Shown: in pieces, positions 6,031 to 24,540 of the stretch
How the letters are laid out: the number at the start of each line of letters is the position of its first letter
Numbering within the stretch: the first letter of the stretch is position 1
DNA from: Chrysochromulina tobinii
Lineage: Eukaryota > Haptophyta > Prymnesiales > Chrysochromulinaceae
Direction of reading: 5' to 3'
Length of the DNA stretch: 25,041 nucleotides
Assembly: GCA_001275005.1 (NCBI GenBank)
Contig: JWZX01000856.1
Span: 1 to 25,041 of the forward strand
Translations under genes and position numbers: made by a program
The notes under the pieces: generated by a model
Databases searched by the model: none
Told to the model about the DNA's origin: nothing
What the model saw: the letters and a program-made list of their open reading frames with translations, nothing else

Positions 6031-9000
6031 TCACTTGCCGCCTCGTTCGATGTGGAGCTTCCATGCAGCCATGAAGCCGGGCGCGCGAGGCTGAGGCTCC
6101 TTCATCGACTTGTCGCAGAAGATCTCGCGGCAGAGGAAGCCGACGCTGCACGAGGCTATTGAGTTGTACTTCCACCCTATCGTCTCGCGAACGCACAGTA
6201 CCAACTCGCCCTTGCGGTTCGAGCCCTCCCCCAACGGCAGCCAGCGCCCGCCATAGTGGACCGTCGAGAGCCTCGGGGCGCCCTCGGGTGCGGCACCCCC
6301 CTCTGGCCCGTTGCCGAAGCTCAGGCACAGCTCATGCGCCTCGCGCGCGAGGTCGATCTGCTCACCAGGCACGCCCTTCTCGCCATTGAGCAGCAGCTGC
6401 GGCAGCTCAGCGTCCCCGACGCTCGGGTCGCTCATGCGCCTCTTGCGCGCGCGTAGGTCGCTCAGAGCCTCGCCAGCTAGCGGCGCGGACACGGTCGAGA
6501 TGTTGCCGCTCTGCCGCCCCATCTCGGCCTCGAGCCGTCCAAAGACTGCCGCCGAGCCCACGTACTTGCGCGCAACGAAGCGCTTCGACTGCTTCCCTTC
6601 GGGCGCGGACTGGTTGAACAGCTCGTAGTAGACAACAGTTGAGGCAAGCATCTTCTTGACCGCGGCGTAGTTGTTCACGTTGAAGAAGGCGAGGAACTCG
6701 AAGTGCGTGTCCAGCGGCTTCTCGACGCGCAAGATGGAGAGGATCGTGCCCCAGGGTGACCATGTAATCTGCTCGCCCATCCGAAAGTGCTCGGAGAGCG
6801 AGCCGCACGTCTCGCGCGTGCCCGCGCCGAAGACGACCCGCGTCTGGCCGTCGTCTGTGAGCATCGCCGGCTGCACGTACTGCAGGCCCTCGATGGCCTT
6901 GGTGCCGTTGGGTCCCCTCGCCTTGAGCTCCCCGAAGCCCTTGACGCCGATGAGCTGTTGGAAGACTTCGCTCCGCCCCTTGAGTTCAAACTGGTCGACG
7001 ATCCCCGCCACCGTCTCGAAGAAGGCGGAGCGCACGGTGAGGGTGACGAACTCGTCCAGCATGCGTTCCATCGTGAGGAGTGACGCCTTGTCCGCCGCGC
7101 TGTTCTGCATCGTCCAGATGCGGTGCAGCCGGAGCACGTTCATCTGGGAGCCATCTGGACGGAGCCGCTGGCCGGCATCGAGTAGCCCAAGACCCGCCGC
7201 TGCGACGGCAGGCATGCCCGACTGCGTGCGCAACATCGTGGTGTAGTCCCAGCTTCGGAAGACTGTCCAGCGCGGCACACTCTCCGAATCGTCCCACGCG
7301 CGGGCGCTCATCATCACGATCTTCTGCAGCGCGTTGGGATCTTTGGTCTTCTTGTCCTCCTCGCCCTCTGCGTACCGGAGGGGAAGCCCGTACGCCGCCT
7401 CCGAGGCACCCCCCTGCGCCTCGCGCCCCGCCAGCAGCCGGTACGTCTTGGGCAACCGCATCGGCTCATCCATATCGGGCACGAGCGCTGTGTCGAGCTT
7501 CTGCTGCAGCGAATTCTTCGCGACGCCGCCGATGCCCGAGGTGACCATGTCGTTGAGCAGGATGGCGGAGCCGCCCGGTGGCGGATTCGAGAGCTCGCCT
7601 TGGATGGCTTGCAAATCCTCAACCGTGAGGTACGTGATCCAGTGCAGGAGCGACGCCTGCGCCGCGTTGGACGCATCGATGGCCTTTTGGACTGCCTTCG
7701 CCCACGCCTTGGCAGCCGCCGCCTCTCCCTCGCCGTCGAGGTCGCCACACCAGGCCCGTGCCTCGTCGGCGCTCACCTTGATGCACGGCTTGCGCTTCAC
7801 AAGCTTCGACAGGAAGCGGCGCGGCGCCGCGTTGGGCACCTTTTGCTGCAAAAGCACCATGTCAAAGGTGCAGCCGCACTCATTCGATTTGTACATGACC
7901 TTGTATATGGAGCGGATCAAATCGGCCTGCTCGACGCTCACGTCGCCCACCGCCTCGGCCGCCACGCTCAAAATCGAGGCTGCGTCGAGCTTGCTCGCCG
8001 TGAACATGTCGAACGCCTGCAAGAGCGCCTCGGAGATATAATCTCGCAGCTTCTTGACGGAGCGCGAGTTGCGCGACTTGACCATCTTCTCCTCGGCGAG
8101 CTGCTCCGCCGTCATCCCCGCCATTCGCGGGCTGAACAACGGGTCCGCCGCGGCCGCATCGATCGCGGGCACGAGCGCCGCCACGTCCTCCGCTGGAGCG
8201 TCTGGCGGGGGCTCCGGAAGGGCGCCCACGACGTCGGAGGTTGACGAAACCGGCGGGTCGGCCCACACGCCCACCTTTTTGGTGCGCATCTCGTACGTGG
8301 CGGCGCCGACGAGGTCGAGCAGTGCGTTCAAGCAGTCGCGGATCTGGTCGATGTCGATGTCGTTCGGGTTCTTGAGCACCGTCGCATCCACCTCAAGAGC
8401 GGCGATCTCCTCCTTGACCGCAGCGAGCCCCTCGAGTGGGGACGCTCCCTTGGGAATCGCGCCGCGCACACGCCCGTCGATGGGCCCAAGGAGCTTGGCG
8501 AGCTCGCACAGCTTGTCGAAGCTGAGCTGCGGCGGCTTGGGCTTGGGCGTGTTGCTCGGCGGGGGTGAGACACCGAGGACGGGCTCCTTGCCCTTGGGTC
8601 CGCTGGGGCTACCGGCCTTGCGCCAGGCTGCCCACGCGTACCGCGCGGCCGAACCGATGGTGAGCATCTGGAGGGTGGTCGGGTCCTCCATGAGGCGCTT
8701 GAGCTTCTCTGAGAGGAAGAGGTCATACGCGGCATGGTCGCCCACGACGGCGCCGCTGCTCACGCCCGTCGCGTTGCGCACCATCGCGGGCAAGCAGCCG
8801 ATGAAGCTGGCCAGCTCGACGTTGTCGACGGCGAGCTCATCCGACGCATCCGACGCAGGGATCAGGTACTCCTCCGGCGCCGCCTCCTCGACTGCGGCGT
8901 CGCCGGCGTCGCCGCAGGGATAGGCGAGCCACTGCTTGTACTGTGCCTCGGCCGCCGCCAACGCCTCGGCGCCCTCGGTAAAGATGTGTCCAGCGCCCAA

Positions 9001-10539
9001 ATATTTGGGTTCGAGCTCCTTCGCCTCGAGCTGCTCGAAGCGCTGGTTGAGCTGCTCACCCAAAGGGGTGCCCGCCAGTCGGATCGCCAGCTGCGTCGAG
9101 AGTGGAATCTCCGCCTCCCGGTTGAAGCAATGCATGCGCAACGCGCCGCGCGCGTCGGCGTACTCGGCGAGCCCCTCGATCAGGAGCTTCTCGAGAGCCT
9201 CGAGCTTCGCCTGGGCGCCGCGCAGCTCGCTCGCGATGGCGGGGAACTGGTCTTGTATGGCCTCCGCTTCAGCGGGCTCCGGCTCGGCAGCGAGCTGCCA
9301 GTGCAGCAGCTGCACCCATCGAACCTTGGCACGCTCCTCGTACCGGAGCGCATTGAGCACGTGTTTTGCATGCTGCTGCAGCAGCGAGGGATCGGTGCTG
9401 CCGGTCACGTGCTGGTAGCCAGAGAGGAGTTCGCCCATCAGGGTGCGCTTCGTCTCGCAGAGGAGCCCGAGAAAGTCGCGCATCTTCATCCGCGTCGGCG
9501 AACGGCAAGGCGCACGCGGCCGGTGCGGGCACCAGGAGCCGGGTAGTCCGGGCACGCCCTGGCGCGCGCGCGCCTCCGGCGACGGGTAGGACTTGACGGT
9601 GCCGTCCTCGGCGAGCCCGATGCTCTTCCAAAGAGAGAAGAGGCGCTCGGCGATGGCCAGCCCCCACGCCTGCTGCAGCGGCGCGCCCACCTCCGCACAC
9701 TTGCTCCAGCGAACTCCCTCCCATACGTCGCACGCGCCGATCGGCTTCTCGACGATCGCGCCGCCGCCGGCGGCGCCCAGCTCGAGCACGACCGATCGAA
9801 ACTGATCGCGCATGTTGCTCGCGAACTCGAGCGAGCGCACGCCGAAGTCGCGCGCATGCACGCCCGTGCACCCCTCTGAAGAGTTGCGTGTGCCGCCGCG
9901 GAGCGCCTTGAGCATCGGCGGCGCGGGCGGCAGCGCGATCGGCACCGCGTCCGGGCTACCGGGCGGATTGCGCTTCCTTCGCGCCTTGAGGATGTCGGCG
10001 ACGAGCGAGCCGATCTCGGGCCTCGGCCCGTCCGGTAGAGCCTGCATCAGCTGGTTGCGGAACGCCTTGTCGAACAGCCGCTCCTCGAGCGGACCGTCGG
10101 CCCAGACGATCCCGCGCAGTCGGAAGTAGAGCCGCGTCGACACCCGTCCATCATCATAGCGGTAGAGGACCATCGCCGGAGGCGCTGTGGAATTCCACGC
10201 CATCGGCTTCGCCGTGGCCAACGTCTGCTTCAGCTTGCGCGCCACGGCGCCAACCGCCATCGCCCTCTCCGACAGCTGCTTTCGCGTCTGCTGGCGACAG
10301 AGCTGCAGGCGTGCCCAGAGCAGTAGCGCGGACGCAAGCTCGGCGGGACTCATGATATCGTCGTCGTCCTCCAGGATCTGCTCCGCACCCGCGCCAAGCA
10401 GCTCGGCCAGCGACTTTCCGGTGTGCTTGATGCCCTCGCACATCTGGACGAGGTCCTCAGAGCAGGTGGGTAGCACTGCGTCGAGCGCGGCCCGGATAGC
10501 TTCGTTGCGCGCAATCTGCTCAGGAGTGCGCTCCGCCAT
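6031..10539 (-). CDS. Giant intronless orphan protein (1,502 aa)
   Basis: A single uninterrupted frame of 1,502 codons runs from an ATG at 10539 to a stop at 6031, which is very unlikely by chance. I do not recognise any domain. The N-terminal third is mostly helical and charged, with a basic RRKR patch and proline-rich linker near residue 185-205. A second low-complexity linker (PPPSNTPKPKPP) lies around residues 655-673, and a third, Pro/Asp-rich, near 770-800. The last ~350 residues look like a compact globular domain with many aromatic residues and several cysteines. There is no signal peptide, membrane helix, Walker motif or zinc-ligand cluster that I can see. Length, linkers and helical content would suit a large scaffold or a replication/recombination-type protein of mobile or viral origin, but no motif supports either. 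Base composition matches the neighbours. It is transcribed divergently from the uS13 gene. Confidence 0.75.
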   Translation of the reverse strand: MAERTPEQIARNEAIRAALDAVLPTCSEDLVQMCEGIKHTGKSLAELLGAGAEQILEDDDDIMSPAELASALLLWARLQLCRQQTRKQLSERAMAVGAVARKLKQTLATAKPMAWNSTAPPAMVLYRYDDGRVSTRLYFRLRGIVWADGPLEERLFDKAFRNQLMQALPDGPRPEIGSLVADILKARRKRNPPGSPDAVPIALPPAPPMLKALRGGTRNSSEGCTGVHARDFGVRSLEFASNMRDQFRSVVLELGAAGGGAIVEKPIGACDVWEGVRWSKCAEVGAPLQQAWGLAIAERLFSLWKSIGLAEDGTVKSYPSPEARARQGVPGLPGSWCPHRPRAPCRSPTRMKMRDFLGLLCETKRTLMGELLSGYQHVTGSTDPSLLQQHAKHVLNALRYEERAKVRWVQLLHWQLAAEPEPAEAEAIQDQFPAIASELRGAQAKLEALEKLLIEGLAEYADARGALRMHCFNREAEIPLSTQLAIRLAGTPLGEQLNQRFEQLEAKELEPKYLGAGHIFTEGAEALAAAEAQYKQWLAYPCGDAGDAAVEEAAPEEYLIPASDASDELAVDNVELASFIGCLPAMVRNATGVSSGAVVGDHAAYDLFLSEKLKRLMEDPTTLQMLTIGSAARYAWAAWRKAGSPSGPKGKEPVLGVSPPPSNTPKPKPPQLSFDKLCELAKLLGPIDGRVRGAIPKGASPLEGLAAVKEEIAALEVDATVLKNPNDIDIDQIRDCLNALLDLVGAATYEMRTKKVGVWADPPVSSTSDVVGALPEPPPDAPAEDVAALVPAIDAAAADPLFSPRMAGMTAEQLAEEKMVKSRNSRSVKKLRDYISEALLQAFDMFTASKLDAASILSVAAEAVGDVSVEQADLIRSIYKVMYKSNECGCTFDMVLLQQKVPNAAPRRFLSKLVKRKPCIKVSADEARAWCGDLDGEGEAAAAKAWAKAVQKAIDASNAAQASLLHWITYLTVEDLQAIQGELSNPPPGGSAILLNDMVTSGIGGVAKNSLQQKLDTALVPDMDEPMRLPKTYRLLAGREAQGGASEAAYGLPLRYAEGEEDKKTKDPNALQKIVMMSARAWDDSESVPRWTVFRSWDYTTMLRTQSGMPAVAAAGLGLLDAGQRLRPDGSQMNVLRLHRIWTMQNSAADKASLLTMERMLDEFVTLTVRSAFFETVAGIVDQFELKGRSEVFQQLIGVKGFGELKARGPNGTKAIEGLQYVQPAMLTDDGQTRVVFGAGTRETCGSLSEHFRMGEQITWSPWGTILSILRVEKPLDTHFEFLAFFNVNNYAAVKKMLASTVVYYELFNQSAPEGKQSKRFVARKYVGSAAVFGRLEAEMGRQSGNISTVSAPLAGEALSDLRARKRRMSDPSVGDAELPQLLLNGEKGVPGEQIDLAREAHELCLSFGNGPEGGAAPEGAPRLSTVHYGGRWLPLGEGSNRKGELVLCVRETIGWKYNSIASCSVGFLCREIFCDKSMKEPQPRAPGFMAAWKLHIERGGK

Positions 10540-10786
10540 TTGAGCGTGCTGGGCGCGTCAGGTTCGCGCGGACGGTTCGCATCAATGTGCCACCATCTGT
10601 TCGAAGCGCCGTTTAAAGCGCTTCGTTTGGACGAATCGTCAATGCGATCAAGCGATGCGTGCGCTCCGAAAAGGGGGAACACTCAAAGTGATATTCACAG
10701 TGTTCGTGCGAAATTCACAGCGAAAACGCTGACGTCGCGCAGGAGACGTGACTGCCCAGAGCCCTGGACAGCCGCCACACGGAGCC
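10540..10786. promoter_or_regulatory. Divergent intergenic region (orphan gene / uS13)
   Basis: These 247 bases must hold the promoters of both the minus-strand orphan and the plus-strand ribosomal protein gene. Two copies of ATTCACAG, 20 bases apart (10693-10700 and 10713-10720), lie within 100 bases of the uS13 start codon. No TATA box is clear. The assignment rests on gene geometry only. Confidence 0.4.
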
Positions 10787-11767: not shown

Positions 11768-11924
11768 TTGACCCAAGGGGGAGTGGTCTACTAAAAATTT
11801 TCATGTTTATAAGGCCCCACCCCTACCGCCTGTCTGGGAATTGAATGGTTGACCCAAGGGGGAGTGGTCTACTATTTTTCATGTTTATAAGGCCCCACCC
11901 CTACACCTGTTTGGGAATTGAATG
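11768..11924. repeat. Two-copy tandem direct repeat, ~81 bp unit
   Basis: Copy 1 spans 11768-11848 and copy 2 spans 11849-11924. Both begin TTGACCCAAGGGGGAGTGGT, continue through TCATGTTTATAAGGCCCC, and end GGGAATTGAATG. They differ by a few substitutions and a ~5-base length difference after GGTCTACTA. Inside each unit AGGGGGAGTGGTC and GGCCCCACCCCT form an imperfect inverted repeat that could fold as a hairpin, and a TTTATAAGG box lies in the middle. The repeat sits between the uS13 gene and the 3' end of the convergent phosphatase gene. The remaining ~100 bases to 12022 show nothing further. Confidence 0.85.
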
Positions 11925-12022: not shown

Positions 12023-12814
12023 TCACGACCTGCCTGTCGTCTTCAGCTCGCGTAGATGGTCTCGCACGTCGAGCGCGCGCACGATGCAGCTTCCATCGAG
12101 GCCGAGGTCGAGCACGTTGATACACGTATTCCCTTGCTTCAAATCGGAGGCGGTCGTGATGTCGCCCTGCAGCGCGGCGATCAAGATCTTGTTGAAGCGA
12201 CCGTGAGCGACCACGCACACGTGGCGCTCGCCTCCCGATGGGCCTTCTCCGAGAAGGCCCAGTGCTCGGAGCCCGGCGAGGCCGCGCCGTGCGACAGCAT
12301 TCGGGCTTTCGCCACGCTCACCCGGGAAGGCTTTGTCAGTGCCGCCGCGCCACGCGCGCAAGTACTGCTTGTAGTCATCGTCAAACTCGCTGAGCAGCAT
12401 GCCCTCGTAGTCGCCAAAGCACATCTCAACGAACGCCTTCTCCTTGGAACGTTTCGCGCTCGGGTGGTGTCGTGCCACGACATCAGCGGTCGTGGAGGCT
12501 CTCGTGAGGCTCGACGAGGCAATGTGCTCCAAGGGAACGTCTGCGAGGGCGTCTGACAGCGCTACCGCCTGCTTGAGCCCAGCCTCATTCAAGGCTTTGT
12601 CTGTGAGGCCCTGGATGCGCCCTTCGAGGTTCCAGTCCGTCTCACCGTGCCTGATCAGGTAGAGCCTCTTGAAGTCCGGCTCCAGTGGTGGCAGCGACAA
12701 CCGAAACTTGGCGGAGCTATCGGCGCTCGAATCCGCGGCGCGCGATAAGGCCGTCGTGACTAAGCATCCGAGCAGGCCGCGGCGTGTGGGCTTCAAGGGT
12801 CTCGCCAACGCCAT
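12023..12814 (-). CDS. Histidine phosphatase (phosphoglycerate-mutase-like) with Tat-like leader
   Basis: This 263-residue protein belongs to the histidine phosphatase superfamily, which uses a phospho-histidine intermediate to hydrolyse or transfer phosphate. The RHG signature is at residues 55-57 (LYLIRHGETDWN), with H56 the nucleophile. The second arginine is R105 (SSSLTRA), the acid is in the FVEMCFGDYEG block (E130), and the second histidine is H204 (VVAHGRFN). The complete set predicts an active enzyme of the small phosphatase type. The substrate cannot be read from sequence. The N-terminus is unusual: TRRGLLGCLVTTALSRAA (about residues 10-27) looks like a twin-arginine signal ending in a small-residue cleavage site. 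In an alga this could mean thylakoid-lumen import, but no long transit peptide precedes it, so that is inference. The start is the first ATG in frame. The neighbouring cyclin C gene is on the same strand, 182 bases upstream. Confidence 0.88.
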   Translation of the reverse strand: MALARPLKPTRRGLLGCLVTTALSRAADSSADSSAKFRLSLPPLEPDFKRLYLIRHGETDWNLEGRIQGLTDKALNEAGLKQAVALSDALADVPLEHIASSSLTRASTTADVVARHHPSAKRSKEKAFVEMCFGDYEGMLLSEFDDDYKQYLRAWRGGTDKAFPGERGESPNAVARRGLAGLRALGLLGEGPSGGERHVCVVAHGRFNKILIAALQGDITTASDLKQGNTCINVLDLGLDGSCIVRALDVRDHLRELKTTGRS

Positions 12815-12996
12815 TTCGGGATTTCGGCAAAGTAGCGCTGCCGTGGGCGTTTATTCTTAAAGGAGTTAGTCGGTGCGTGCCGTCTATAGCGCACGTGCGA
12901 GACGGCAGATTCGCGTTTGCATTGCGCGGCTAAAGCCGGTCGCGGACGCCTCTGGCTCTTCTATAGGCCGCAGCTCCTCAAGTGCTCAACGGCGCC

Positions 12997-13969
12997 TCAC
13001 TCGGCCATCGGTTGCGTGAATTGCGGTGGAGTCCACGGCCGGCGCGGTCTCCAGTGCTCGTCAAGGCGCTCGCGCGTGGCGCTCACTTCCCTAGGCTGCA
13101 AGCGCGCACAGCGCTCGAAGAGCACGTATAGAGAGCCGGTGGCGAGCTCGGCGTGGCGCTGCAGCTCGTCCGAGGGCGTCGGCAACAGACCTTGCAGCGG
13201 CATCTTGAGCAGCTCCGCAGCCTGAGCACACGGCGAGGCGCATTCACAGTACATTCACAGGTGAGTGCATGGCCGCAGGCTGCGAGGGCGCGCGAACGGC
13301 TCTACAACAATGGCGGCGGTGGGTGCTCACCGTCTGGAGGCACGCGAGAGCGAGGGCGAGCGGAGGGCACCAGAGCACGACGTCTGTCTTGTAACAGTCG
13401 GTGAGCAGCGCGTGTGCCGCGTGCACGAGGCTTTCGCGCTCGTCGGCGCTCATTGGCTCGTTGGCCGCACCCTCGGCGGCCGCCGTGATGGCGTGCTTGC
13501 ACAGGCGAGCGAGGGGCACGTGCGGATGCGGCACGAGCAATGCGAAGCCCAGAGCTTCGAGCAGCATCGGCTCGGCGGCGATGAGCTGTGCGGTCTCATA
13601 AGGTTGCTGCTGCTCAAGCTCTGAAAGCTCCCGAAGGATCGTCTTCGCTGCAACGGGGCACTCCTCGACCTTGCTGGCGGCCCACAGCGCCGTGGGTGCG
13701 ATCAGAAGCGGGTCAGCATCAAGCAGCGAACGCTCCGAGTAGAACCGGCGGAAGAAGACGATGGCCGTGGCGACTGCCGGCTGCCTGAGTTTCACTCTTC
13801 TGCCGAGCGCCTCTGTGAGCTGTGAATAATAGAGCTTGGCCAGCTCGTTGTCACCCGAGCTCCATCCGGCACTGGCGTCACGTGCAATTATCTCATCTAG
13901 CACCGAGCGCTCGAGCTGCCGAGCACCGAGCTGCCGCTCCGCGACGATCGCACGTAGCGGGACGGCCAT
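12997..13969 (-). CDS. CCNC: Cyclin C, Mediator CDK8-module cyclin (two exons)
   Basis: Exons are 13969-13331 and 13221-12997, with a 109-nt intron 13330-13222 (GTGAGC...GCTCAG, phase 0). The 287-residue product is close to the usual cyclin C length. The first cyclin box is clear: KLRQPAVATAIVFFRRFY, DPLLIAPTALWAASKVEE (K100 and E102-E103 are the helix-3/5 kinase-contact positions). The second box contains LLTDCYKTDV and PPLALALACL, directly followed by the exon junction. Exon 2 supplies the last helices and a diverged, proline-rich tail. Cyclin C partners CDK8/19 in the nuclear Mediator kinase module. An upstream in-frame ATG at 14032 would add 21 residues. I prefer 13969 because it has G at -3 and G at +4, while 14032 is in a poor context. 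The N-terminal FWxSSH motif typical of animal and plant cyclin C is not present, so this copy is diverged there. Cyclin L/K types are less likely. Confidence 0.85.
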
Positions 13970-14126
13970 TTCCGCGCGAACGCTTTCAAGGCCGCAAGGA
14001 ATGATCAACGTTGTTGACGAACCTATCGGCATTTATTCCCGCATGATCGAGGCATCCAGACGAAATTTCACACTATGGTTGTCGCTTCTGACGTGTTAAC
14101 ACAGGTTAACGTTCACAAACGGTCGG
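13970..14126. promoter_or_regulatory. Short divergent promoter (cyclin C / UPF0193 gene)
   Basis: Only 157 bases separate the two opposing start codons, so both genes must share regulatory DNA. Close to the plus-strand start there are two GTTAAC palindromes ten bases apart (14095-14100 and 14105-14110). No TATA box is obvious. The role is inferred from layout. Confidence 0.4.
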
Positions 14127-14948: not shown

Positions 14949-15096
14949 ACAGTGTTGAGTGTAGACTTGACTAGACTTGACTTGATGCCAAAGGAAGAAA
15001 CCGCTCGGTACAGCGCGGCGAGCAGTTCGCAAGTAAAAGCGCAAACGCCCTGTTGGCTTTGCCGTCAAGGCCCTGTGGCTGCGCGCGCATTGACCG

Positions 15097-15700
15097 ATGG
15101 CAGCGCACGCATTGACCGATGGCCTCGATCCAGTGGTTGCGCGCAAGCGCGAGATCTTCAGGTCCATCAAGGAGGGTTTTGCGCTCTTCGATCCCGAAAA
15201 GAAGGGCATGTGCGACGTCCGAGAGATCGGTACGATCGTGCGGCACCTGGGCATCAACCCGACGGAGATCGAGCTGCGTGACATGATCACGGAAATTGAG
15301 GAGGAGGAGCCCACCGGTTTCATTGCCTTTGAGCGCTTCGAGCGCATGATGCAGAGGATCATGCTTGAAAATCAGTACCCACGGGACTCGGAGGAGAAGC
15401 TGCTGCGCGCTTTCCGGACTCTCGACCCCGAGAACAAAGGGTACGTCGAGGCGGACAAGATCCGTACGCTGCTGACGACCCACGGCGAGCGCTTCTCGCA
15501 GGAGGAGATTGAAGACTTCTTGCACTTTGCTGTCGACGCTGAGTCTGGCGTGCTCCACTATGAGGGTACGCGCATGGCCACAACGAGCATGCCGCGGCGC
15601 CACATGCGCATTGCGGCGCCACCACACGGGGTGCTCTTCTCACCATGTCTGCTGCTCGCTGCCCATGCCCGCAGATTACGTGGTGCAGGTCGCGCCGTGA
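15097..15700 (+). CDS. DRC8: Dynein regulatory complex subunit 8 (EFCAB2-like EF-hand protein), two exons
   Basis: Exon 1 is 15097-15565 and exon 2 is 15675-15700. The 109-nt intron 15566-15674 (GTACGC...CCGCAG) splits an Asp codon, restoring HYEDYVVQVAP before the TGA. The 164-residue product has four EF-hand-like units (roughly 20-55, 57-90, 100-135, 140-164). The strongest calcium-loop candidate is around DPENKGYVEAD (110-120). The block VREIGTIVRHLGINPTEIEL followed by EEEEPTGFIAFE is nearly diagnostic for EFCAB2/DRC8, distinguishing it from centrin and calmodulin. DRC8 is part of the nexin-dynein regulatory complex, which links outer doublets and regulates dynein in motile axonemes. Without the intron, the reading frame would run on into an unrelated Arg/His-rich tail. 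A 14-bp direct repeat (GCATTGACCGATGG) overlaps the start codon, and its second copy lies just inside the gene. Confidence 0.93.
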
Positions 15701-16029
15701 GAAGGAGGGCTCGGCGGCCGTTTCGGAACATGCGCTCCTGAACGCATACTAGCGCCGCCACGACCCCGAGAATTGCTAACCGGCCGCGCATACACGCTCA
15801 TAGAACAACTCTCAGTATAGATCAATATCACTGCGAAACAAAAATTTCGTATGTTGAATCTGAATCGGTAATACGCGTCAAACGATCGAGCGCGACCGGT
15901 GTGCGGTCGTAGCTCGTACCGAACTCGAGGCGGGTAGGCTAGGCCCATGCGCCCATGGTACTAAGGCCGTAAGGAATTTATTTGCATACCGCACATTTTG
16001 GGAGCGCCACCCGTCACTCCGTCGTTCAC
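15701..16029. other. Intergenic region between convergent genes
   Basis: This region of 329 bases lies between the DRC8 stop and the stop of the minus-strand methyltransferase-like gene. The middle (about 15800-15880) is AT-richer than the surroundings and probably contains both 3' UTRs. I see no gene, tRNA or notable repeat. Confidence 0.5.
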
Positions 16030-17544: not shown

Positions 17545-17763
17545 TCCGCAAAACAAAATACCGTACTGAGATGAAAAAGGGAAAAGTACAACAAATAATG
17601 CGTGCAGAAGCTCCACAGCGAGACGTGTGATCTCGTGCGGGGAAAAGTTGTTTTCGAAAGTTGAGCGCCGCCAAACACTTGCTGTCGAATGGCGAAGCTC
17701 AGCCTGCAGGCCCACTATTCCAGCGTCGTCCACCAGCATCACAGTCTTCGCACAGTCCACCAA
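17545..17763. promoter_or_regulatory. Divergent intergenic region
   Basis: These 219 bases lie between the chosen start of the methyltransferase-like gene and the signal-peptide ATG of the surface-protein gene. Part may be a 5' exon of either gene, since both frames remain open into it (ATGs at 17739 minus and 17689 plus). No promoter motif is clear. Confidence 0.35.
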
Positions 17764-20700
17764 ATGAGAGGGTTGAATGGTGGAGTCTTACTCGTCGCCG
17801 CCGCTTTGGGCGCGCGCGCCGAGAGCGCAACCTCCGCCCCCTTTGACGAGGCGCCTTGGGCGAGCCGTCAGCTTCTTCTCGGCGCCACTTCTCCTTCCCC
17901 GCCGTCGCAGCCGACCCCCTCTGTTACTGGCGCCGAGCACCCTTGTAACAGATATGGCACCGACTGCGCCGACTGCGGACCAGGCCAGCCGCTGCCACCA
18001 CCGGCGGTCAGCCCATCCCCCTTGCGTGCTGGCACTGGCATCTGGACGACGGCGTGCTTCTTTGCATCAGCCGAGTGTTTGGACGGCGGCCCCGGCTCCG
18101 AGCTCCTGATGTGCGCGTACGGCACCGACTGCGTCGACTGCGGCGCGCGCAACGTGTCGCCGCCCCCGCCGCCACATTCCTCTGGCGTGGTGTACACGAA
18201 CGACTGCCTCAACGCCGGCGACAGCGGCGGCCCTGGCTCCAAGTTCGCGACGTGCGCCTTCGGCACCGACTGCGTCGACTGTGGCCCGCGCGTCTCCATG
18301 CCATTGCCGCCTCCACGGCCACCAGCAGCGCATCCGGCACCCAACCCACCGCCGAGTAGCATCTGCTCGACCCCGTGCTTCTACACCTCCAACGCTGATT
18401 GCGATGATGGCGGCTTCGGCTGCCTGATCTGCGCCTACGGCACCGACTTGACAAGCTGTCGCGAGCACCCTCCGCGCCGTCACAAGCATAGATCGCGCGG
18501 TCACGAGCGCGCCCCCGGTCGCGCTGTCGCGAGCACCACCTGCGCCGTCGCGAGCACCTTCTGCGCCGTCACCTCCCGCGCCGTTGCATGCACCATCCGG
18601 GCCGTCGCAAGCCCCACCCGGGCCGTCGCGAGCACCAACCGGGCCGCCGCGATCACCACCAGCGCTGCTGTGAGCACCATCTGCGCCGGCATGGGCACCT
18701 TACGCGCCATCGCGAGCACTGCACGCGCCGGCATGGGCACCATACGTGCCTTCAAGGGCAGCTTCGTCATCATGGGTAACATACGTGCCGTCGTGAGCCT
18801 TCCGCGCGCCGTCGTGAGCCTCACACGCGCCGTCGTGAGCATACTTTGCGCCATAATGGGCACTCGTCGCCCTGTCGCGAGCACCTCCCACGCCGAAGGG
18901 AGCACCAACCGCGCCGTAATGACCACCAACCGCGCCGAGCACTTCCCGCGCTGCCACGAGCGCACGCGCCGTCGTGGGCACTTAACGTCACCGCCCCCGC
19001 CGATGCCCCCACCCAAGACGCCACCGTGCCGTTCGGACTCTGGCCTGACGCCACCGCCTGCGACCTCGCCGACACATCCGACCTCGGCAACACATCCGAC
19101 CTCGCCAACACATCCGATCACACGCTCACATACCCAAAGGCCCGATGGACACGGTGAGATCTGGTTGGAGACGCGGCTGGAGGCGGCTTCCAATTGGTGG
19201 CCAGTCACCAGGCAGCTACCCCTGCCTCTCGCTCTGCATGGCCAGTATCCGTCTGGCGACACTTTGTTGGATGCATCCGACTGCCTGAGGAACCAAGTGA
19301 TCCCCGTGCTGGCCGGTCGCGCCCACACTGTGTCCTCGTCCAGCAGCTCACTCGGTGATTGGCCAACGGATGTCCTTCACACGCAGTGTGCATTCATAGT
19401 GTGCGCAGGCAATGTCGTGGCAGAAGTCGTCGGCTCGCTGCCCTTCCACGCTGCGCTTATCCCCGCATCGTGGGACCACCTGCTTGCGCCAGATGGGGCG
19501 GTCGCTGCACTGGGCGATCACGTGATCCTCGACGCCAAAGAGCAGGTGCGCGACCAGCGGCCCACAGACGCCATCGTCCCAGGATTGTGGATGCTCGGGC
19601 AGCGCCTGGCTCCAGATCTTCGTAGCACGGTTTCGGCAAAGAGCCTTTATCTCCTTGGGTGCACGGCAAAGAGCGATGCTCTTCTTGCGTTGGAAGCCGA
19701 GCAACAGCAAGTCCTCCTGGCGCTCCATCGAGGTGCGATCACGTCCTCTTTGAAAGGCTCTGCTAGCCATTTGGTGGCGCGTGCTTGCAATCTGGTGGCG
19801 CCTGCTGACAGGTTGGTGGTGGTGCTAGCTCGCCTTTTGGCGACGTCTGCGTTCCTTCGGCTGGCGTCTGCTCGCTTTTCGGTGGCGTCTGCTCGCTTTT
19901 CCGTTGCGCCTGCTCATGATTTGGACGGCGGCAGCATACTCAATCCACGACAGTTGGTGCTGTGGGGGTGCATGCTGATGGGATCGCTCATGGCATGGCA
20001 TCATCGTTTTGCGAAGCCTCCTTGCACTCGGCCTCGGCCTCGAGAGGAACATAAGCTGCAGGTTACCCTCACTCTCCTTGCATTGTACAGCATGCTCCCC
20101 TGCACCAAGGCCAGCGACGCTCCCGGGCTGTACGAGCATCCTGTGCCCAGCCACCGCCGTGAGCTGCAGACGGCAGTGAGAAGCAGCGCCGGCCTGACCA
20201 GTGCACTCGCCAGCCCAACCGTCGGCCACATTGTCCTTGCCTCCGGCACCTACTACCTCAGCGCCGAGCTCAGAATCACCAGGAGCGTGATCATCGAGGC
20301 GGCCGTGGCAGGCTCGGTCGTGCTGCACGCGCAGGCGAGCTCCTCGAGTCCGCGTCGTGTGCTGTACATCAGCCCGGGGTCGAGGGGCGTCGTGCAACTG
20401 TTCGGGCTCAAACTCACGGGAGGCCTCACCATCTATGTGCGTGCTCATATGTTCAAATGTTCCCATCGCCCCCATGGGAAGATTGCTGACGCGCTTGCCT
20501 CGACTCTCGCTTGTGCAACTGCGAACGCATCGGTGAACTATACAAAGGGGGTGCGTGCCACAGAGACCTTGAAAACTTCCCATCGCCCTGATGGGAAAAT
20601 TTTTGTGCTGACCCGCTTACCTCGACTCTCACTCACACAACTGCGGCCGACGCTCCGGTCAACAACAGCAAGTACGTGCCGCAGAGACCTTCAACTATCC

Positions 20701-23043
20701 CATCGCCCCGCTGGGAAAAATGCTGACGTGCTTGCCTCGACTCACGCTTGCACAACTGCGGCCAACGCTCTGATCAACTCCAGGGGGTGCGTGACGCAGA
20801 GACCTTCAAAAGTTCCCATCACCCCAATGGGAAAATTGCTAACGTGCTTGCCTTGACTCTTGCTTGCACAACTACGAACGCTTCGGTCAACTACAGAATG
20901 TACGTGCCGCATAGACCTACAACTATCCCACATCGCCCCGATGGGAGAATTGCTGACGCGCTTGCCTCGACTCACTCTTGCACAACTGCGAACCCTTCGG
21001 TCAACTACAGTATGTACGTGCCAACTGTAGACCTTGAAAAGTTAAGTTCCGATCGCGCCAATGGAAAAATTGCTGACGAGTTTGCCTCGACTCTTGCATG
21101 CACTACTGTGGCTGACGCTTTGGTCAACTACAGGAAGTATGTTCTGCAGAGGACCTCTAACTTTCCCATTGCCCCGATGGGAAAATTGCTGACGTGCTTG
21201 CCCCCGACTCACGCTTTGCACAACTGCGAATGCTTCGGTCAACTATACAGGGGGTGCGTGCTGCAAAGACCTTGAAAACTTCCCATCGCCCCGATGGGAA
21301 AGTTATTGCTGACGTGCTTGCCCTGACTCACGCTTGCACAACTGCGGCCCACGCTCTGGTCAACTGCAGTGGGTATGTGCCGCACAGAGACCTGAAATTT
21401 CATCACCACCGCCCTGATGGGAAAATGCTGATGTGCTTGCCCCGACTCTCGCTTGCACAACTACGAACGCTTCGGTCAACTACGAACAGCGGGTACGTGC
21501 CGCAGAGAACTTGAAAAGTTCCCAACGCCCCCATGGGAAACTCACGTTTTGCTCTTTGTTTGTGTAGGGCGGCGGTGTCTACGTCTCTTCTGGCACGGTC
21601 TCGATAACGTCTTCCTCGATCACCGGCAACACAGCTTCTGGAATTGTGCGTGCTTATGTGCAAAACTTCCCATCGCCCCGATGGGATGCCTTGCTGACAC
21701 ATGCCCAAAACGACTCTCATCTTTTATGATGGGTGCTGCCTCGATCTACCAGTATGGGGTACGTGCCATCTGGGCCTGAAACTTCAAAAGTTCGCATCGC
21801 CCCGATGGGAAAGTTGCTGATGAGCTTGCCACGACTCACGCTTGCACAACTGCGGCCGAAACTCCGGTCAACTACAGACTGTACGTGCCGCAGAGGACCT
21901 CTAATTTTCCCATGGCCTCCATGGGAAACTCACGTTTTGCTCGTTGTTTGTAGGGCGGCGGTGTCTACGTCTCTTCTGGAACGGTCTCGATAACGTCTTC
22001 CTCGATCACCGGCAACACAGCTTCTTATGTGCGTGCTCACACTCCAAATCTCCCATCGCCCCGATGGGAAAGTTGCTGACGTGCTTGCCTCCGACTCACG
22101 CTTTGCACAACTGCGAATGCATCGGTCAACTACAGTGGGTGCGTGCCACAGAAACCTTGAAAGTTCCCATTGCCCCCATGGGAGACTCACGTTTTGCTCG
22201 TTGTTTGCAGGGCGGAGGTGTCGCCGTCTCGTCTGGCTCAGTGACCATTGATTCGTGCACCATCACTGGCAACACAGCTCTCTATGTGCGCGCTCATCCT
22301 CAAAAGTTCCCAATGCCCCAATGGGAAATCTGCGCCCCGATGGGAGACTCACGATTTGCTCGTTGTTTGCAGGGCGGCGGTGTCTATGACTCGTCGATGT
22401 CTGGCACAGTGGCCATCTCATCGTCCACCATAAGTGGGAACTCTGCTAGCTCTGTGCGCGCTCACGCTCTCAAAAGTTCCCATTGCCCCGATGGGAAAAA
22501 TTCTGACGTGTGCTTGCCTCGACTCTCGCTTGCACAACTGCGAACGCTTCGGTCAACTCCAGTTAGTACGTGCCACAGAGACCTTGAAAACTTCCCATCG
22601 CCCGCATGGGAGACTCACCTTTTGCTCGTTGTTTGTAGGGCGGCGGTGTCTACGTCTCTTCTGGCACGGTCTCGATAACGTCTTCCTCGATCACCGGCAA
22701 CACAGCTTCTTATGTGCGTGCTCACACTCTAAATCTCCCGTAGTGACCACTGTGTGCCCGTAGTGACCACTGTGTCGTCGCGTTCCCTAATACTCCCCCT
22801 GCCCAGGGGCCCAATGTCTATGTCAGCAGTGGAGGCACAGCAGTCTCCAGGGCAACAAACCTCACCGGCGTCTCTGGCACAGTCTGGAATTTAACTCTGG
22901 GTAGTTATATACTGATCGGACTGCTAGCGTTGGCTTTCGTCTGGCAGTCGTTGCGTGCTGTCGTTGCTTGCTGTCGTCGAGAGCAAGATTCCTGGCAAGT
23001 CATTATTGACGACGACGCGCCGAACGATCCTCAGTGCGCATGA
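17764..23043 (+). CDS. Large secreted/membrane protein: Cys-rich GTDCxDCG modules plus beta-helix rungs, many exons
   Basis: The ATG at 17764 opens a signal peptide (MRGLNGGVLLVAAALGARA); an in-frame ATG at 17689 would bury it. Exon 1 (17764-20436) encodes four cysteine modules (last consensus CxYGTDCxDCGxR; about 17938-18465, the fourth decayed to GTDLTSC), a low-complexity linker, an ~800-nt unrecognised part, a hydrophobic stretch near 20060-20110, and the start of a pectin-lyase-like beta helix (HIVLASGTYYLS, VVQLFGLKLTGG). The main downstream exons, all phase 0, are 21568-21645, 21954-22028, 22211-22285, 22373-22453, 22639-22713 and 22807-23043. The first five encode about one rung each (GGGVYVSSGTVSITSSSITG). 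Spacers of 3 or 6 nt lie between other introns and may be microexons. The last exon encodes a membrane helix (SYILIGLLALAFVW), a CCRR boundary and an acidic 25-residue tail ending at TGA 23041-23043. The frame closes perfectly over all junctions. Function is probably cell surface or matrix; no catalytic site is seen. Exon 1 may be two genes: an in-frame ATG at 19972 precedes a second signal-like segment. Confidence 0.75.
18480..18990 (+). repeat. Degenerate minisatellite (GCGCCGTCGCGAGCACC-type)
   Basis: A motif of about 18 bases, later about 30, is repeated many times (GCCGTCGCGAGCACC, GCCGGCATGGGCACC, GCCGTCGTGAGCCTC). In the gene's frame it reads as RAVAST-like repeats. Shifted by one base, the first ~200 bases read as a proline-rich APSRAPPAPSRAP linker, the type expected between cysteine modules in this protein style, until a stop near 18672. 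Confidence 0.75.
20437..21567 (+). repeat. Head-to-tail array of ten intron-like units with 3-nt spacers
   Basis: Units run from a GT donor to an AG acceptor: 20437-20547, 20551-20668, 20672-20783, 20787-20896, 20900-21010, 21014-21133, 21137-21250, 21254-21369, 21373-21489 and 21493-21567. Nine have lengths of 110-120 nt and the last has 75. Spacers are GGG, CAA, GGG, AAT, TAT, GAA, GGG, TGG and CGG, always exactly three bases. Most units start GTRYGTGCC, have a central palindrome based on CCCATCGCCCCGATGGG, then TTGCTGACGTGCTTGCC and CTTGCACAACTGCG, and end CGGTCAACTACAG. The first unit starts GTGCGTGCTCAT. The last ends GCTCTTTGTTTGTGTAG, in front of a beta-helix exon. The array may be spliced stepwise, with one-codon exons, or removed as one long intron. 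Confidence 0.85.
21646..22806 (+). repeat. Alternating beta-helix exons and modular palindrome introns
   Basis: Introns here are 21646-21752, 21759-21877, 21881-21953, 22029-22135, 22139-22210, 22286-22372, 22454-22562, 22566-22638 and 22714-22806. Spacers between adjacent introns are TATGGG (21753-21758), ACT (21878-21880), TGG (22136-22138) and TTA (22563-22565). After a beta-helix exon the intron begins GTGCGYGCTYA; after a spacer it begins GTACGTGCC or GTGCGTGCC. Before a beta-helix exon the intron ends TTGCTCGTTGTTTGYAG; before a spacer it ends CAACTACAG or CAACTCCAG (21752 is diverged). The intron at 22286-22372 joins exon-type 5' and exon-type 3' halves directly and carries a second partial palindrome. 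The last intron has lost the palindrome. Confidence 0.85.
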
Positions 23044-23453
23044 TGAAGACGAACCACCCACTGATTGCGATTGGGCGCCTCGCTCCCTCTCTGAGTGCCA
23101 TCGCGCAGAGAATCGACAGGCAGGGCGCTCTGCCTGCCAGTGACTGCCTTTTGCCATCTTGACGTCCATTCAGCAGCATAAACGCGCCAAACGTTGCGGA
23201 CGGACACCTGCTCCCTTCTTCGCCTGATTGATTGCCCCGAGGGGTGATTGGCGACGACGCGGGGTGTCGTGCACATTCTTCCGCACGTGAGTTGCACCGA
23301 TTGCCTTCCCTATGCCTTCCCATGGCGAACGAATGGCGGCGGGTTGCGATTGGTTGCGGCCGACTGGTCGCAATGGACGACCTCTGTGGCAACCGAGTGC
23401 CTTGGCATTGCACAGCGCCAAAACAGCGTGCGTTCGCCCTCGTGCTTCCACAG

Positions 23454-24540
23454 GCGGGACAAGGCGGCGGCCGACAAGGCGGCGGCCGACAAGGCGGCGG
23501 CCGAGAGGGCGGCGGCCGACAAGGCCGCGGCAGAGAAGGCGGCGGCCGAGAAGGTGGCGGCCGAGAGGGCGGCGGCCGAGAAGGTGGCGGCGGCGGAGAG
23601 GGCGAAGAAAGCTGAAGAGAAGGCGAAGAAAGCTGAAGAGAAAGACGGCTTCGCCCTCCGGCCTCTTCTGCCGGGGACCGACTTGCTGCAATCGCTCGAG
23701 GCGCTGCTCCAGACAGATGGCTCGGAGCTTGGCAAGGGCTCGGACGTGAAGAAAAAGTACGGCGAGTACGACTCGCTCAAGCTCGCGTGTGCGTGGAAGG
23801 TCGACCATCAACGCAACCTGGACAAGTACACGACCGGCGTGAAGCGCGTGCAGAAGGAGCTCGAGATGCTTGAGAAGAAAGGCAAGGATGTCTCCAATGT
23901 TCCCGGCCTGCCCGTGAAGACGGATTGCGTGGGCGGCTTCACCCTCTCGCAGGCTTGCAATGAGGTCATCCTCTTGCATGGTGTCAACCCAGATCGGCTG
24001 CTAGACCTGCTGTCCACGGGCCTGAACGAGCACTTCGCAGGCATCAACACGGGCACCGCCTTTGGCGACGGCGTCTACCTCGCGGAGGACGCTGGCAAGA
24101 CGGATCAGTACGTAGGCCCCGACAGCGCGTACGACCCAAGCAGTGAGCTGCACAAGCGGCTGTATGACGAAACCATGCCCCACCCGGAAGACGTCCTCTA
24201 CGTTCTCGTGGTGCGCGCGGCCCTCGGCTTCCCCATGCGCACGCAGCGTACGCTGGTCAAAAAGGCAAAGACACATGACCTTCGAGCCGCACGGGTCACC
24301 TCGATGGACAATGGCGCGCCTATCTTTCCAGTCAGCTGCCGTGAGCTCTCGGCAGTGCCGGGTGTCATGCCAAAAATCTTTCACCATTCGCTGATTGCCG
24401 AGCTGGGCAAGGATATCGTGCGCTACCGCGAGTTTGTTCTCTTCAACAGCAACTACGTGCACATCGACTACGTCATCGCCTACCACCGCTACAATAAAGG
24501 CCAGAAGCTGCGCATGACCGACAGTCCCTATCAGGCATGA
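23454..24540 (+). CDS. PARP-family ADP-ribosyltransferase, catalytic 3' exon
   Basis: The C-terminal ~190 residues are a PARP catalytic domain, which transfers ADP-ribose from NAD+ to proteins or nucleic acids. The NAD-binding H is in VILLHGVN (codon 23977-23979), the Tyr is in GKTDQYVG (24109-24111) and the catalytic Glu is in YREFVLFN (24430-24432). FGDGVYLAE and the final YVIAYHRY strand also fit. The complete H-Y-E triad predicts an active polymerase-type enzyme rather than a mono-transferase lacking Glu. The N-terminal part is an Ala/Lys/Glu helix built of pentapeptide repeats. No in-frame ATG exists upstream within reach (the open frame extends to about 23248 without one), so the initiator must be in another exon. 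TGCTTCCACAG ending at 23453 is the best acceptor, and GTGAGT at 23287 is a possible upstream donor. The upstream exon could not be placed. The phase at 23454 is one base completing a codon. Confidence 0.85.
23458..23600 (+). repeat. In-frame 15-bp coding repeat ([10 protein letters not shown])
   Basis: About nine copies of a GACAAGGCGGCGGCC-like unit encode D/E-K/R-A-A/V-A pentapeptides, followed by two KKAEEKA copies up to about 23640. The charge pattern suits a single straight alpha helix. The third bases and the Asp/Glu and Lys/Arg codons vary, while the frame is kept. Confidence 0.85.

What the first reader, a model, noticed from the sequence alone, without database searches (positions are those of the whole stretch)
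20437..21567. Ten intron-like units in series separated by exactly three bases
Seen directly: nine consecutive junctions read acceptor AG, three bases, then donor GT. The three bases vary freely (GGG, CAA, AAT, TAT, GAA, TGG, CGG...) while the flanking splice-site-like sequences are kept. Four more such junctions occur downstream (three of 3 nt, one of 6 nt), so all 13 spacers are multiples of three, while unit lengths vary without regard to three (110-120 nt). Flanking beta-helix exons are all phase 0. This is what serial one-codon microexons, each adding or skipping a single residue, would look like. The other reading is a tandem satellite of introner-like DNA removed as one 1,131-nt intron, with the spacer fixed by the duplication unit. 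Either is unusual. A chain of 3-nt exons would be extreme, since both spliceosomes would have to work across almost no exon. The absence of stop codons among the spacers is not informative at this number.
Basis: partly seen in the sequence, partly recalled or inferred. Interest (0 to 1): 0.93.

Follow-up and report, generated by a model that had tools for sequence, protein, structure and literature searches.

The report
Chains of one-codon exons in alga
In a freshwater alga, one loop of a predicted surface protein appears to be spelled out by nine consecutive exons of a single codon each, separated by similar small introns, and a database protein that matches a sister gene residue for residue shows such codons joined; this is an extreme form of splicing that could let a cell vary a protein one amino acid at a time.

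Summary
The host is the haptophyte Chrysochromulina tobinii. Interval 20437-21567 holds ten introns (nine of 110-120 nt, one of 75) and nine 3-nt spacers. Junctions of this family occur on 18 other contigs, in chains of two or more on 12. In 118 junctions every spacer is a multiple of three (85x3, 26x6, 1x9, 4x15, 1x18, 1x36), while intron lengths show no such rule; no spacer codon counted is a stop. An isolated copy interrupts a conserved PITH-domain gene, and exact removal restores the domain. Units are equally diverged within and between arrays, so a recent local satellite does not explain the spacing. Decisive: database protein P0066 equals, 266 of 266 residues, a product of sister locus L014 in which four introns are exactly removed, four one-codon exons (GGG, GGG, GAT, TAT) are kept, and one GC-AG intron is retained. 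The microexons fill the variable turn between beta-helix coils that intron-free paralogues encode continuously. Best reading: serial one-codon exons that spell out protein loops. Whether codons are also skipped combinatorially is open; no RNA reads were examined, and no product of the window gene was found.

The parts
17689..20436 (+). First exon (start codon uncertain; an ATG at 20092 begins MLPCTKA.. as in several relatives): N-terminal region and start of the beta-helix, ending LKLTGGLTIY
   Evidence: Open frame to 20436, donor GTGCGTGC; 19297-19620 is 95% identical to environmental protein P0025
20437..21567 (+). Array: ten introns and nine one-codon microexons
   Evidence: Direct reading; tandem period 116/236
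20548..20550 (+). Microexon GGG (Gly)
   Evidence: Acceptor CAAAG, donor GTGCGTGC
20669..20671 (+). Microexon CAA (Gln)
20784..20786 (+). Microexon GGG (Gly)
20897..20899 (+). Microexon AAT (Asn)
21011..21013 (+). Microexon TAT (Tyr)
21134..21136 (+). Microexon GAA (Glu)
21251..21253 (+). Microexon GGG (Gly)
21370..21372 (+). Microexon TGG (Trp)
21490..21492 (+). Microexon CGG (Arg)
21568..21645 (+). Coil exon GGGVYVSSGTVSITSSSITGNTASGI
   Evidence: acceptor TTTGTGTAG
21753..21758 (+). Two-codon microexon TATGGG (Tyr-Gly), type B acceptor CTACCAG
21878..21880 (+). Microexon ACT (Thr)
21954..22028 (+). Coil exon GGGVYVSSGTVSITSSSITGNTASY
22136..22138 (+). Microexon TGG (Trp)
22211..22285 (+). 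Coil exon GGGVAVSSGSVTIDSCTITGNTALY
22286..22372 (+). Plain 87-nt intron without microexon (similar 5' end, palindrome and 3' end)
22373..22453 (+). Coil exon GGGVYDSSMSGTVAISSSTISGNSASS
22563..22565 (+). Microexon TTA (Leu)
22639..22713 (+). Coil exon GGGVYVSSGTVSITSSSITGNTASY
22807..23043 (+). Last exon: GPNVYVSSGG.. cap, hydrophobic (probable transmembrane) stretch YILIGLLALAFVW, tail, stop
   Evidence: translation; transmembrane call is by eye

Best explanation
The units are small spliceosomal introns and the 3-nt (sometimes 6, 9, 15, 18 or 36-nt) spacers are real, phase-0 microexons that enter the mRNA. They encode, one codon at a time, the variable turn between coils of a right-handed beta-helix protein that is probably anchored in the cell membrane. 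Splicing probably runs by intron definition, one intron after another: once a unit is removed, its single codon sits at the end of the growing exon just before the next donor, so no spliceosome has to recognise a 3-nt exon from both sides (inferred). Because every exon is symmetric, any subset could be skipped without breaking the frame (follows from lengths); skipping itself is not shown. The intron family is introner-like: copies were found on 20 contigs, 15 of them beside coil exons, one in an unrelated PITH gene, four in degenerate or unclear surroundings.
For: Spliced product: P0066 (JGI, 266 aa, contig 2080 nt) is identical in 266 of 266 residues to locus L014 read as exon 1 (..GGYYDV), GGG, GGG, retained GC-AG intron of 108 nt, GAT, TAT, coil exon GGGFYV.. 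and on into the next intron; four introns are removed exactly at array splice sites (diagonals). Skipping all microexons would read YYDVGGGFYV instead. Frame: 96 of 96 type A junctions have spacers divisible by three, also 19 of 19 in-array type B (all 6 nt) and 3 of 3 type C (15 nt). Introns: 44 micro-to-micro lengths mod 3 = 16/16/12; flanking landmarks show 50 length changes of which 18 are multiples of three (13 of them one shared variant), spacers 11 of 11 (Fisher 1.9e-7 without the shared variant, 8.3e-5 with it). Stops: 0 in 166 codons, 12.1 expected by position-wise shuffle; 51 distinct spacers expect 5.9, P=0.0023. Five of six distinct spacers of 9 nt or more in that call carry two Cys, in the predicted frame only (CFGNC, CASNPC, CAYGQSHGQMGC, CSDCS, CWNCG; the sixth reads YNV). 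Working sites elsewhere: isolated unit in a PITH gene, spliced 154 bits over 9-173 of 176, unspliced 94 bits over 9-115. Second fit: P0019 reads ..VNYSMYVLQRP, so its microexon can only be CAT or TAT; P0006, identical over 235 aa, has one extra Tyr before GGGVYV. Third: P0070/P0013, identical over 174 aa, then intron versus AGPNG+GGGVYV.
Against: No RNA read was examined, and no product of the window gene itself was found. The records do not state whether P0066, P0006 and P0013 come from RNA or DNA and their DNA could not be fetched; an allele that lost some introns through cDNA would look alike (it would still carry the codons). P0066 keeps one intron and runs into another, so it is not a mature message. 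NCBI model Ctob_000360 (P0091) joins exon 1 straight to a coil exon, skipping four microexons, though it comes from a prediction pipeline. Junctions share ancestry; about ten distinct length changes remain. Against intron trinucleotides (2.3% stops) only about 4 stops are expected (P about 0.02). The microexon/loop composition match (Spearman 0.67) is equalled by shuffled spacer bases (0.67), so it adds little. Raw profile-anchored distances were not divisible by three in 12 of 96; they become so when the first AG after the CAAC anchor is taken as acceptor, with two boundaries set by hand. A few spacers hold another AG (two type C spacers in L010 end TGTAG-C; L013 GCAGCA and AGG), which would give 1- or 2-nt spacers if used.
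Confidence: 0.94

Rival explanations
1. Recursive splicing: AG-NNN-GT sites are stepping stones by which one long intron is removed in pieces, and the codons are normally lost from the mRNA, with inclusion only as a rare by-product.
For: AG next to GT resembles ratchet points; gene model P0091 shows a fully skipped form.
Against: P0066 keeps four of four microexons; divisibility by three, absence of stops and two-Cys longer exons mean the codons matter for the protein; these arrays are about 1 kb, not very long introns.
Confidence: 0.04
2. A tandem satellite of dead introner DNA removed as a single intron; spacing fixed by the duplicated unit.
For: Head-to-tail units, TRF periods 116 and 236.
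Against: P0066; adjacent units (mean identity 0.803, 34 pairs) are no closer than units of different loci (0.809, 851 pairs); spacer lengths vary but only by threes; isolated copy is a working intron.
Confidence: 0.01
3. The AG-NNN-GT block is conserved for a DNA-level reason (for example the insertion or recombination site of a mobile element), not for coding.
For: A palindrome (TTCCCATCG CCC CGATGGGAA) recurs in the units (38 of 44 matched); the family is introner-like.
Against: Does not explain 6 to 36-nt spacers without stops, nor the codons present in P0066.
Confidence: 0.01

Closest known systems
Schistosome micro-exon genes (MEGs)
   Same: Serial short symmetric exons in proteins facing the outside, allowing variants that differ by a few residues (PMC4350168, passages seen; PMC10526429, abstract passage: exons of 3-81 bp).
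   Different: MEGs have mixed exon sizes and long introns (up to 5 kbp, same abstract), in animals; here up to nine successive 3-nt exons, introns of about 110 nt from one sequence family, in an alga; sequence relation not tested.
Single very small exons (Arabidopsis APC11 1-nt exon; 3-nt alternative exons)
   Same: Show that splicing can join across 1-3 nt; intron definition combined with recursive splicing is the route proposed (PMC4674806, passages seen; PMC8831610, passages seen).
   Different: Isolated cases or two adjacent microexons in the passages seen, not chains.
Recursive splicing / ratchet points
   Same: Acceptor directly followed by donor; stepwise removal (search listing and abstract starts).
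   Different: Zero-length exons in long introns, nothing kept; here 3n nucleotides are kept under frame constraint.
Introners
   Same: Many similar introns in one genome, one copy in an unrelated gene; introners are reported from a Chrysochromulina sp. metagenome assembly (PMC9860276, passages seen).
   Different: Those carry the 5' site, co-opt the 3' site and show 4-bp target duplications; here both sites lie within the unit and no target duplication was established; most copies are in one gene family in chains.
Right-handed beta-helix / chlamydial PMP-like repeat proteins
   Same: Pfam Chlam_PMP hit for the spliced window protein (25.4 bits, cut-off 20.6), Beta_helix for relatives P0001 and P0013.
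   Different: Loops split into one-codon exons; relative P0006 gave no Pfam hit.

Membership tests
Microexon (exon of about 30 nt or less) | Bounded by working splice sites | tested here: met
   Four introns exactly removed around GGG, GGG, GAT, TAT in P0066 versus L014; same family excised in PITH gene by protein homology; donor GT in 95 and GC in 1 of 96 (AG is part of the boundary definition)
Microexon (exon of about 30 nt or less) | Present in mature mRNA | tested here: inconclusive
   P0066 266/266 and P0006/P0019 show the codons joined, but record type (RNA or DNA) is not stated and P0066 keeps introns; not tested for the window gene
Micro-exon-gene-like architecture | Series of symmetric (3n) microexons in one gene | tested here: met
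   13 in the window, longest run 9; 118 of 118 junctions 3n
Micro-exon-gene-like architecture | Protein variants by differential exon skipping | not testable with these tools
   Needs RNA; in P0066 none of four was skipped
Introner | Similar introns at different sites in different genes | tested here: inconclusive
   20 contigs, 15 beside coil exons, one PITH gene, four degenerate or unclear (C837, C902, C968, C1055)
Introner | Target site duplication or terminal inverted repeats | not tested
   Only looked at by eye at the PITH site; no empty site at hand
Recursive splice site | Zero-length exon regenerating a donor, no retained sequence | tested here: not met
   Spacers are 3-36 nt, frame-constrained, and kept in P0066
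Tandem satellite | Neighbouring copies more alike than distant ones | tested here: not met
   0.803 adjacent versus 0.809 between loci
Right-handed beta-helix protein | Profile match to Beta_helix or PMP repeat | tested here: met
   weak for the window protein; no structure model (job failed, then tool switched off)

The most novel reading that the evidence does not exclude
A combinatorial generator of surface variants working one residue at a time: each one-codon exon in the loop arrays can be included or skipped independently, so this single gene (13 symmetric microexons) could make up to 2^13 in-frame versions of its beta-helix loops, a Dscam-like diversity system (Dscam named from recall) in a single-celled alga, built from introner-like introns.
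Probability: 0.27. Interest if true: 0.96.

Novelty: new variant of a known kind. Interest (0 to 1): 0.89.

Why it matters
Single 1-3 nt exons are known as rarities; chains of up to nine would show that spliceosomes can work codon by codon, and give a natural test bed for intron definition, stepwise splicing and how tiny exons avoid being skipped. The genome is otherwise intron-poor (on average one intron per gene, PMC4580454, passages seen), so the arrays look like a special use of introns to write, and perhaps vary, protein loops. It also means that gene models for this family of haptophyte proteins are likely to miss these codons, as P0091 does.

Tried and rejected
Palindrome as a selected RNA hairpin: pairs are mostly kept (30-36 of 38) but no clear compensatory double changes, and of six introns folded (five from the window, one PITH copy) z-scores ran from +0.46 to -2.26; left unexplained. 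Local tandem duplication: no signal. Composition of microexons as proof of loop identity: matched by base-shuffled spacers, so not used as proof. DNA of relatives: pattern scans of viral contigs and genome contigs gave 0 matches; a protein-guided scan of viral contigs matched 5 stretches, none a relative. Two C. parva gene models (P0123, P0128) against this genome gave no microexon information. The third protein search gave no further spliced/unspliced pair by my comparison. The three protein searches list 120 proteins each of 1309, 641 and 248 hits, so products may have been missed; my near-identity filters (and the second part of 85) also missed P0066 as a spliced form because its joins lower the aligned identity; it was recognised on rereading and confirmed. 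I first took P0066 for a fused microexon-coil exon; that was wrong. Set aside: six of 25 type B regex hits (lengths 12, 19, 24, 37, 37, 38), coil exons or chance outside arrays; one of 58 coil-acceptor hits, window 11081; four loose pattern hits. Further junctions seen outside the 118 (L026 CAAGAT, L018 AATTGTTAC; L009 TATTCA, which is in the stop count) are also 3n.

Full report
What was found. The window is contig C283 of a 53.15-Mb, 2,253-contig genome. The species is Chrysochromulina tobinii: protein P0091, named Ctob_000360 of C. tobinii by NCBI, lies on a 72,211-nt contig, the length of C2205, and matches it exactly in three blocks; taxonomy Haptophyta, Prymnesiales.

Between exon 1 (ending ATCTAT at 20436) and the next coil exon (GGCGGCGGT from 21568) there are ten stretches that begin GTRYGT and end AG, separated by nine 3-nt spacers. 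Four more spacers follow (TATGGG, ACT, TGG, TTA). The modelled exons are all in phase 0. With the microexons counted as exons, the 19 introns are 72-120 nt long; without them the introns would be 1131, 308, 182, 87, 185 and 93 nt. The unit length claim is slightly off (the tenth unit is 75 nt).

It is a genome-wide family. The array DNA matches 77 places on 20 contigs. I fetched these and built two separate profiles, one for the end of a unit and one for its start, from 12 window junctions (which are among those counted), and paired their hits: 96 junctions. Taking the first AG after the conserved CAAC as acceptor, spacers are 3 nt in 85, 6 in 7, and 9, 15, 18 and 36 in one each: 96 of 96 divisible by three. 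Two boundaries were set by hand (an insertion inside a donor in L013 and a deletion in L016); before the AG step, 12 of 96 raw distances were not divisible by three because the indel lies between CAAC and AG, or in one case in the donor. A second acceptor type (CTACCAG) gives 19 in-array junctions, all 6 nt, and a third gives three of 15 nt. Together these lie in the window and 18 other contigs; runs of two or more occur on 12 of the 18 (leaving out the set-aside hits). A scan that asked only for two short motifs 0-30 nt apart gave 53 places, 53 divisible by three.

This is not inherited rigidity. Forty-four introns between microexons have lengths 93-124 with no preference for a frame (16, 16, 12), and distances between other landmarks often shift by 1, 2, 4 or 5 nt; spacers change only by threes (Fisher tests). 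Units are about 80% alike whether they are neighbours or from different contigs, so a recent tandem duplication that would fix the spacing is not seen. Because junctions share ancestry I count about ten distinct spacer-length changes rather than 118 independent ones.

The spacers read as protein. None of 166 codons is a stop. Five of the six distinct spacers of 9 nt or more in that call carry two cysteines in the predicted frame only: CFGNC, CASNPC, CAYGQSHGQMGC, CSDCS, CWNCG; the sixth reads YNV. Intron-free paralogues in the same genome (for example the 1,611-codon frame in L031) carry at the same place, between GNTA and GGGV, variable turns such as QDGS, GNWWQDD and TYDCCNNGLYGH (62 loops collected). 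Microexon residues resemble these turns, although shuffled spacer bases resemble them as well.

The splice sites work in another gene. One unit lies alone in contig C1965 inside a PITH-domain gene. Removing GTGCGTGC...GTCAACTACAG restores the domain (154 bits, positions 9-173 of 176) while reading through gives 94 bits and ends at position 115. A pattern search and a search with this unit list the family only on contigs already known.

A spliced product with one-codon exons. Protein P0066 (JGI, 266 aa, one contig of 2,080 nt) is identical in all 266 residues to locus L014 (contig C640) read as follows: exon 1 up to GGYYDV; GGG (1083-1085); GGG (1195-1197); the intron 1198-1305 kept in frame (36 codons; it has the one GC donor among the 96 junctions); GAT (1306-1308); TAT (1419-1421); the coil exon from 1489 (GGGFYV...); and then the following intron to a stop. 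Four introns (exon 1 to GGG, GGG to GGG, GAT to TAT, TAT to coil) are thus removed exactly at the array splice sites and four one-codon exons are kept. A near-identical unspliced form is present as P0126 (98.7% to L014). This is what a partly processed transcript looks like; the record does not state its molecule type. In a second pair P0019, unspliced, allows only CAT or TAT as the microexon, and P0006, identical over 235 residues, has one extra Tyr there. In a third, P0013 has AGPNG where P0070 enters an intron of this family; 57 of 57 coil exons found by an acceptor pattern in array genes of C. tobinii begin at GGG, AGG, GAG or GPN (the pattern misses some exons, such as those of L015), so the extra residues probably come from microexons. 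Unspliced frames crossing junctions keep frame in 22 of 22 counted cases in 19 of 248 proteins (one, P0242, is the window's own). Against this stands the NCBI model P0091, which skips four microexons; the genome paper's passages describe a pipeline of TopHat/Cufflinks, Augustus, SNAP and GeneMark, which I would not expect to place 3-nt exons (inference).

How it most likely works. The introns carry a donor GTRYGT, a palindrome, a branch-like CTNAY whose T and A are invariant in the 44 introns aligned, and an acceptor. Stepwise intron definition is the simplest route, as proposed for the 1-nt Arabidopsis exon (PMC4674806, passages seen). The retained GC-AG intron in P0066 fits a weaker donor. 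The protein is probably a membrane-anchored right-handed beta-helix (Pfam hits; hydrophobic stretch near the C-terminus by eye), and the microexons spell its inter-coil turns.

Novelty. Searches for 3-nt or single-codon exons, for serial microexons in protists or algae, for Chrysochromulina introns, for introners and for schistosome MEGs listed no paper on chains of one-codon exons as far as the titles and abstract starts shown tell; only the best 10-20 of each list were seen, in an open-access library. Closest in architecture are schistosome MEGs; closest in size are isolated 1-3 nt exons; closest in origin are introners. I file it as a new variant of a known kind.

What is shown and what is inferred. 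Shown: junctions, frame constraint, no stops in the codons counted, functional intron elsewhere, no local duplication signal, a database protein that equals the spliced reading of a sister locus. Strongly suggested: inclusion in mRNA at the window gene. Inferred: splicing order, membrane exposure, any combinatorial use.

Noticed in passing
L027:2735-2841 (G000:C1965:4734-4840): An isolated copy of the array intron sits in phase 0 inside a PITH-domain gene; the only copy seen in a clearly unrelated gene.
   Followed up: yes
L014:1198-1305 (G000:C640): The one array intron with a GC donor among the 96 junctions is the one retained (in frame, 36 codons, no stop) in P0066.
   Followed up: partly
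L012, L016, L017, L010, L020 arrays: Longer microexons (15-36 nt) carry two Cys codons, suggesting disulphide-closed mini-loops.
   Followed up: partly
units, for example window 20579-20600: A 9-bp palindrome TTCCCATCG-CCC-CGATGGGAA recurs on the donor side of the introns (38 of 44 matched), also in plain introns between coil exons; no covariation shown.
   Followed up: partly
L024:2560-3000 (G000:C968); L022, L023, L019: Unit copies in unidentified or degenerate surroundings (C968 has two units with spacer AAA), perhaps decaying escapees or pseudogenes.
   Followed up: no
window 22737-22775: The last intron lacks the palindrome and holds two exact copies of a 20-nt repeat CCCGTAGTGACCACTGTGTG.
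   Followed up: no
window 23248-24537 (+): Downstream open frame with a PARP catalytic domain (36 bits) after a stretch with 15-nt repeats.
   Followed up: no
window 12026-12850 (-), 13247-14032 (-), 15094-15738 (+): Histidine phosphatase, cyclin N-terminal and EF-hand proteins.
   Followed up: no
window 6034-10557 (-): A 1,508-codon open frame with no Pfam match.
   Followed up: no
window 11768-11924: Two tandem copies of a 78-nt unit (91% matches).
   Followed up: no
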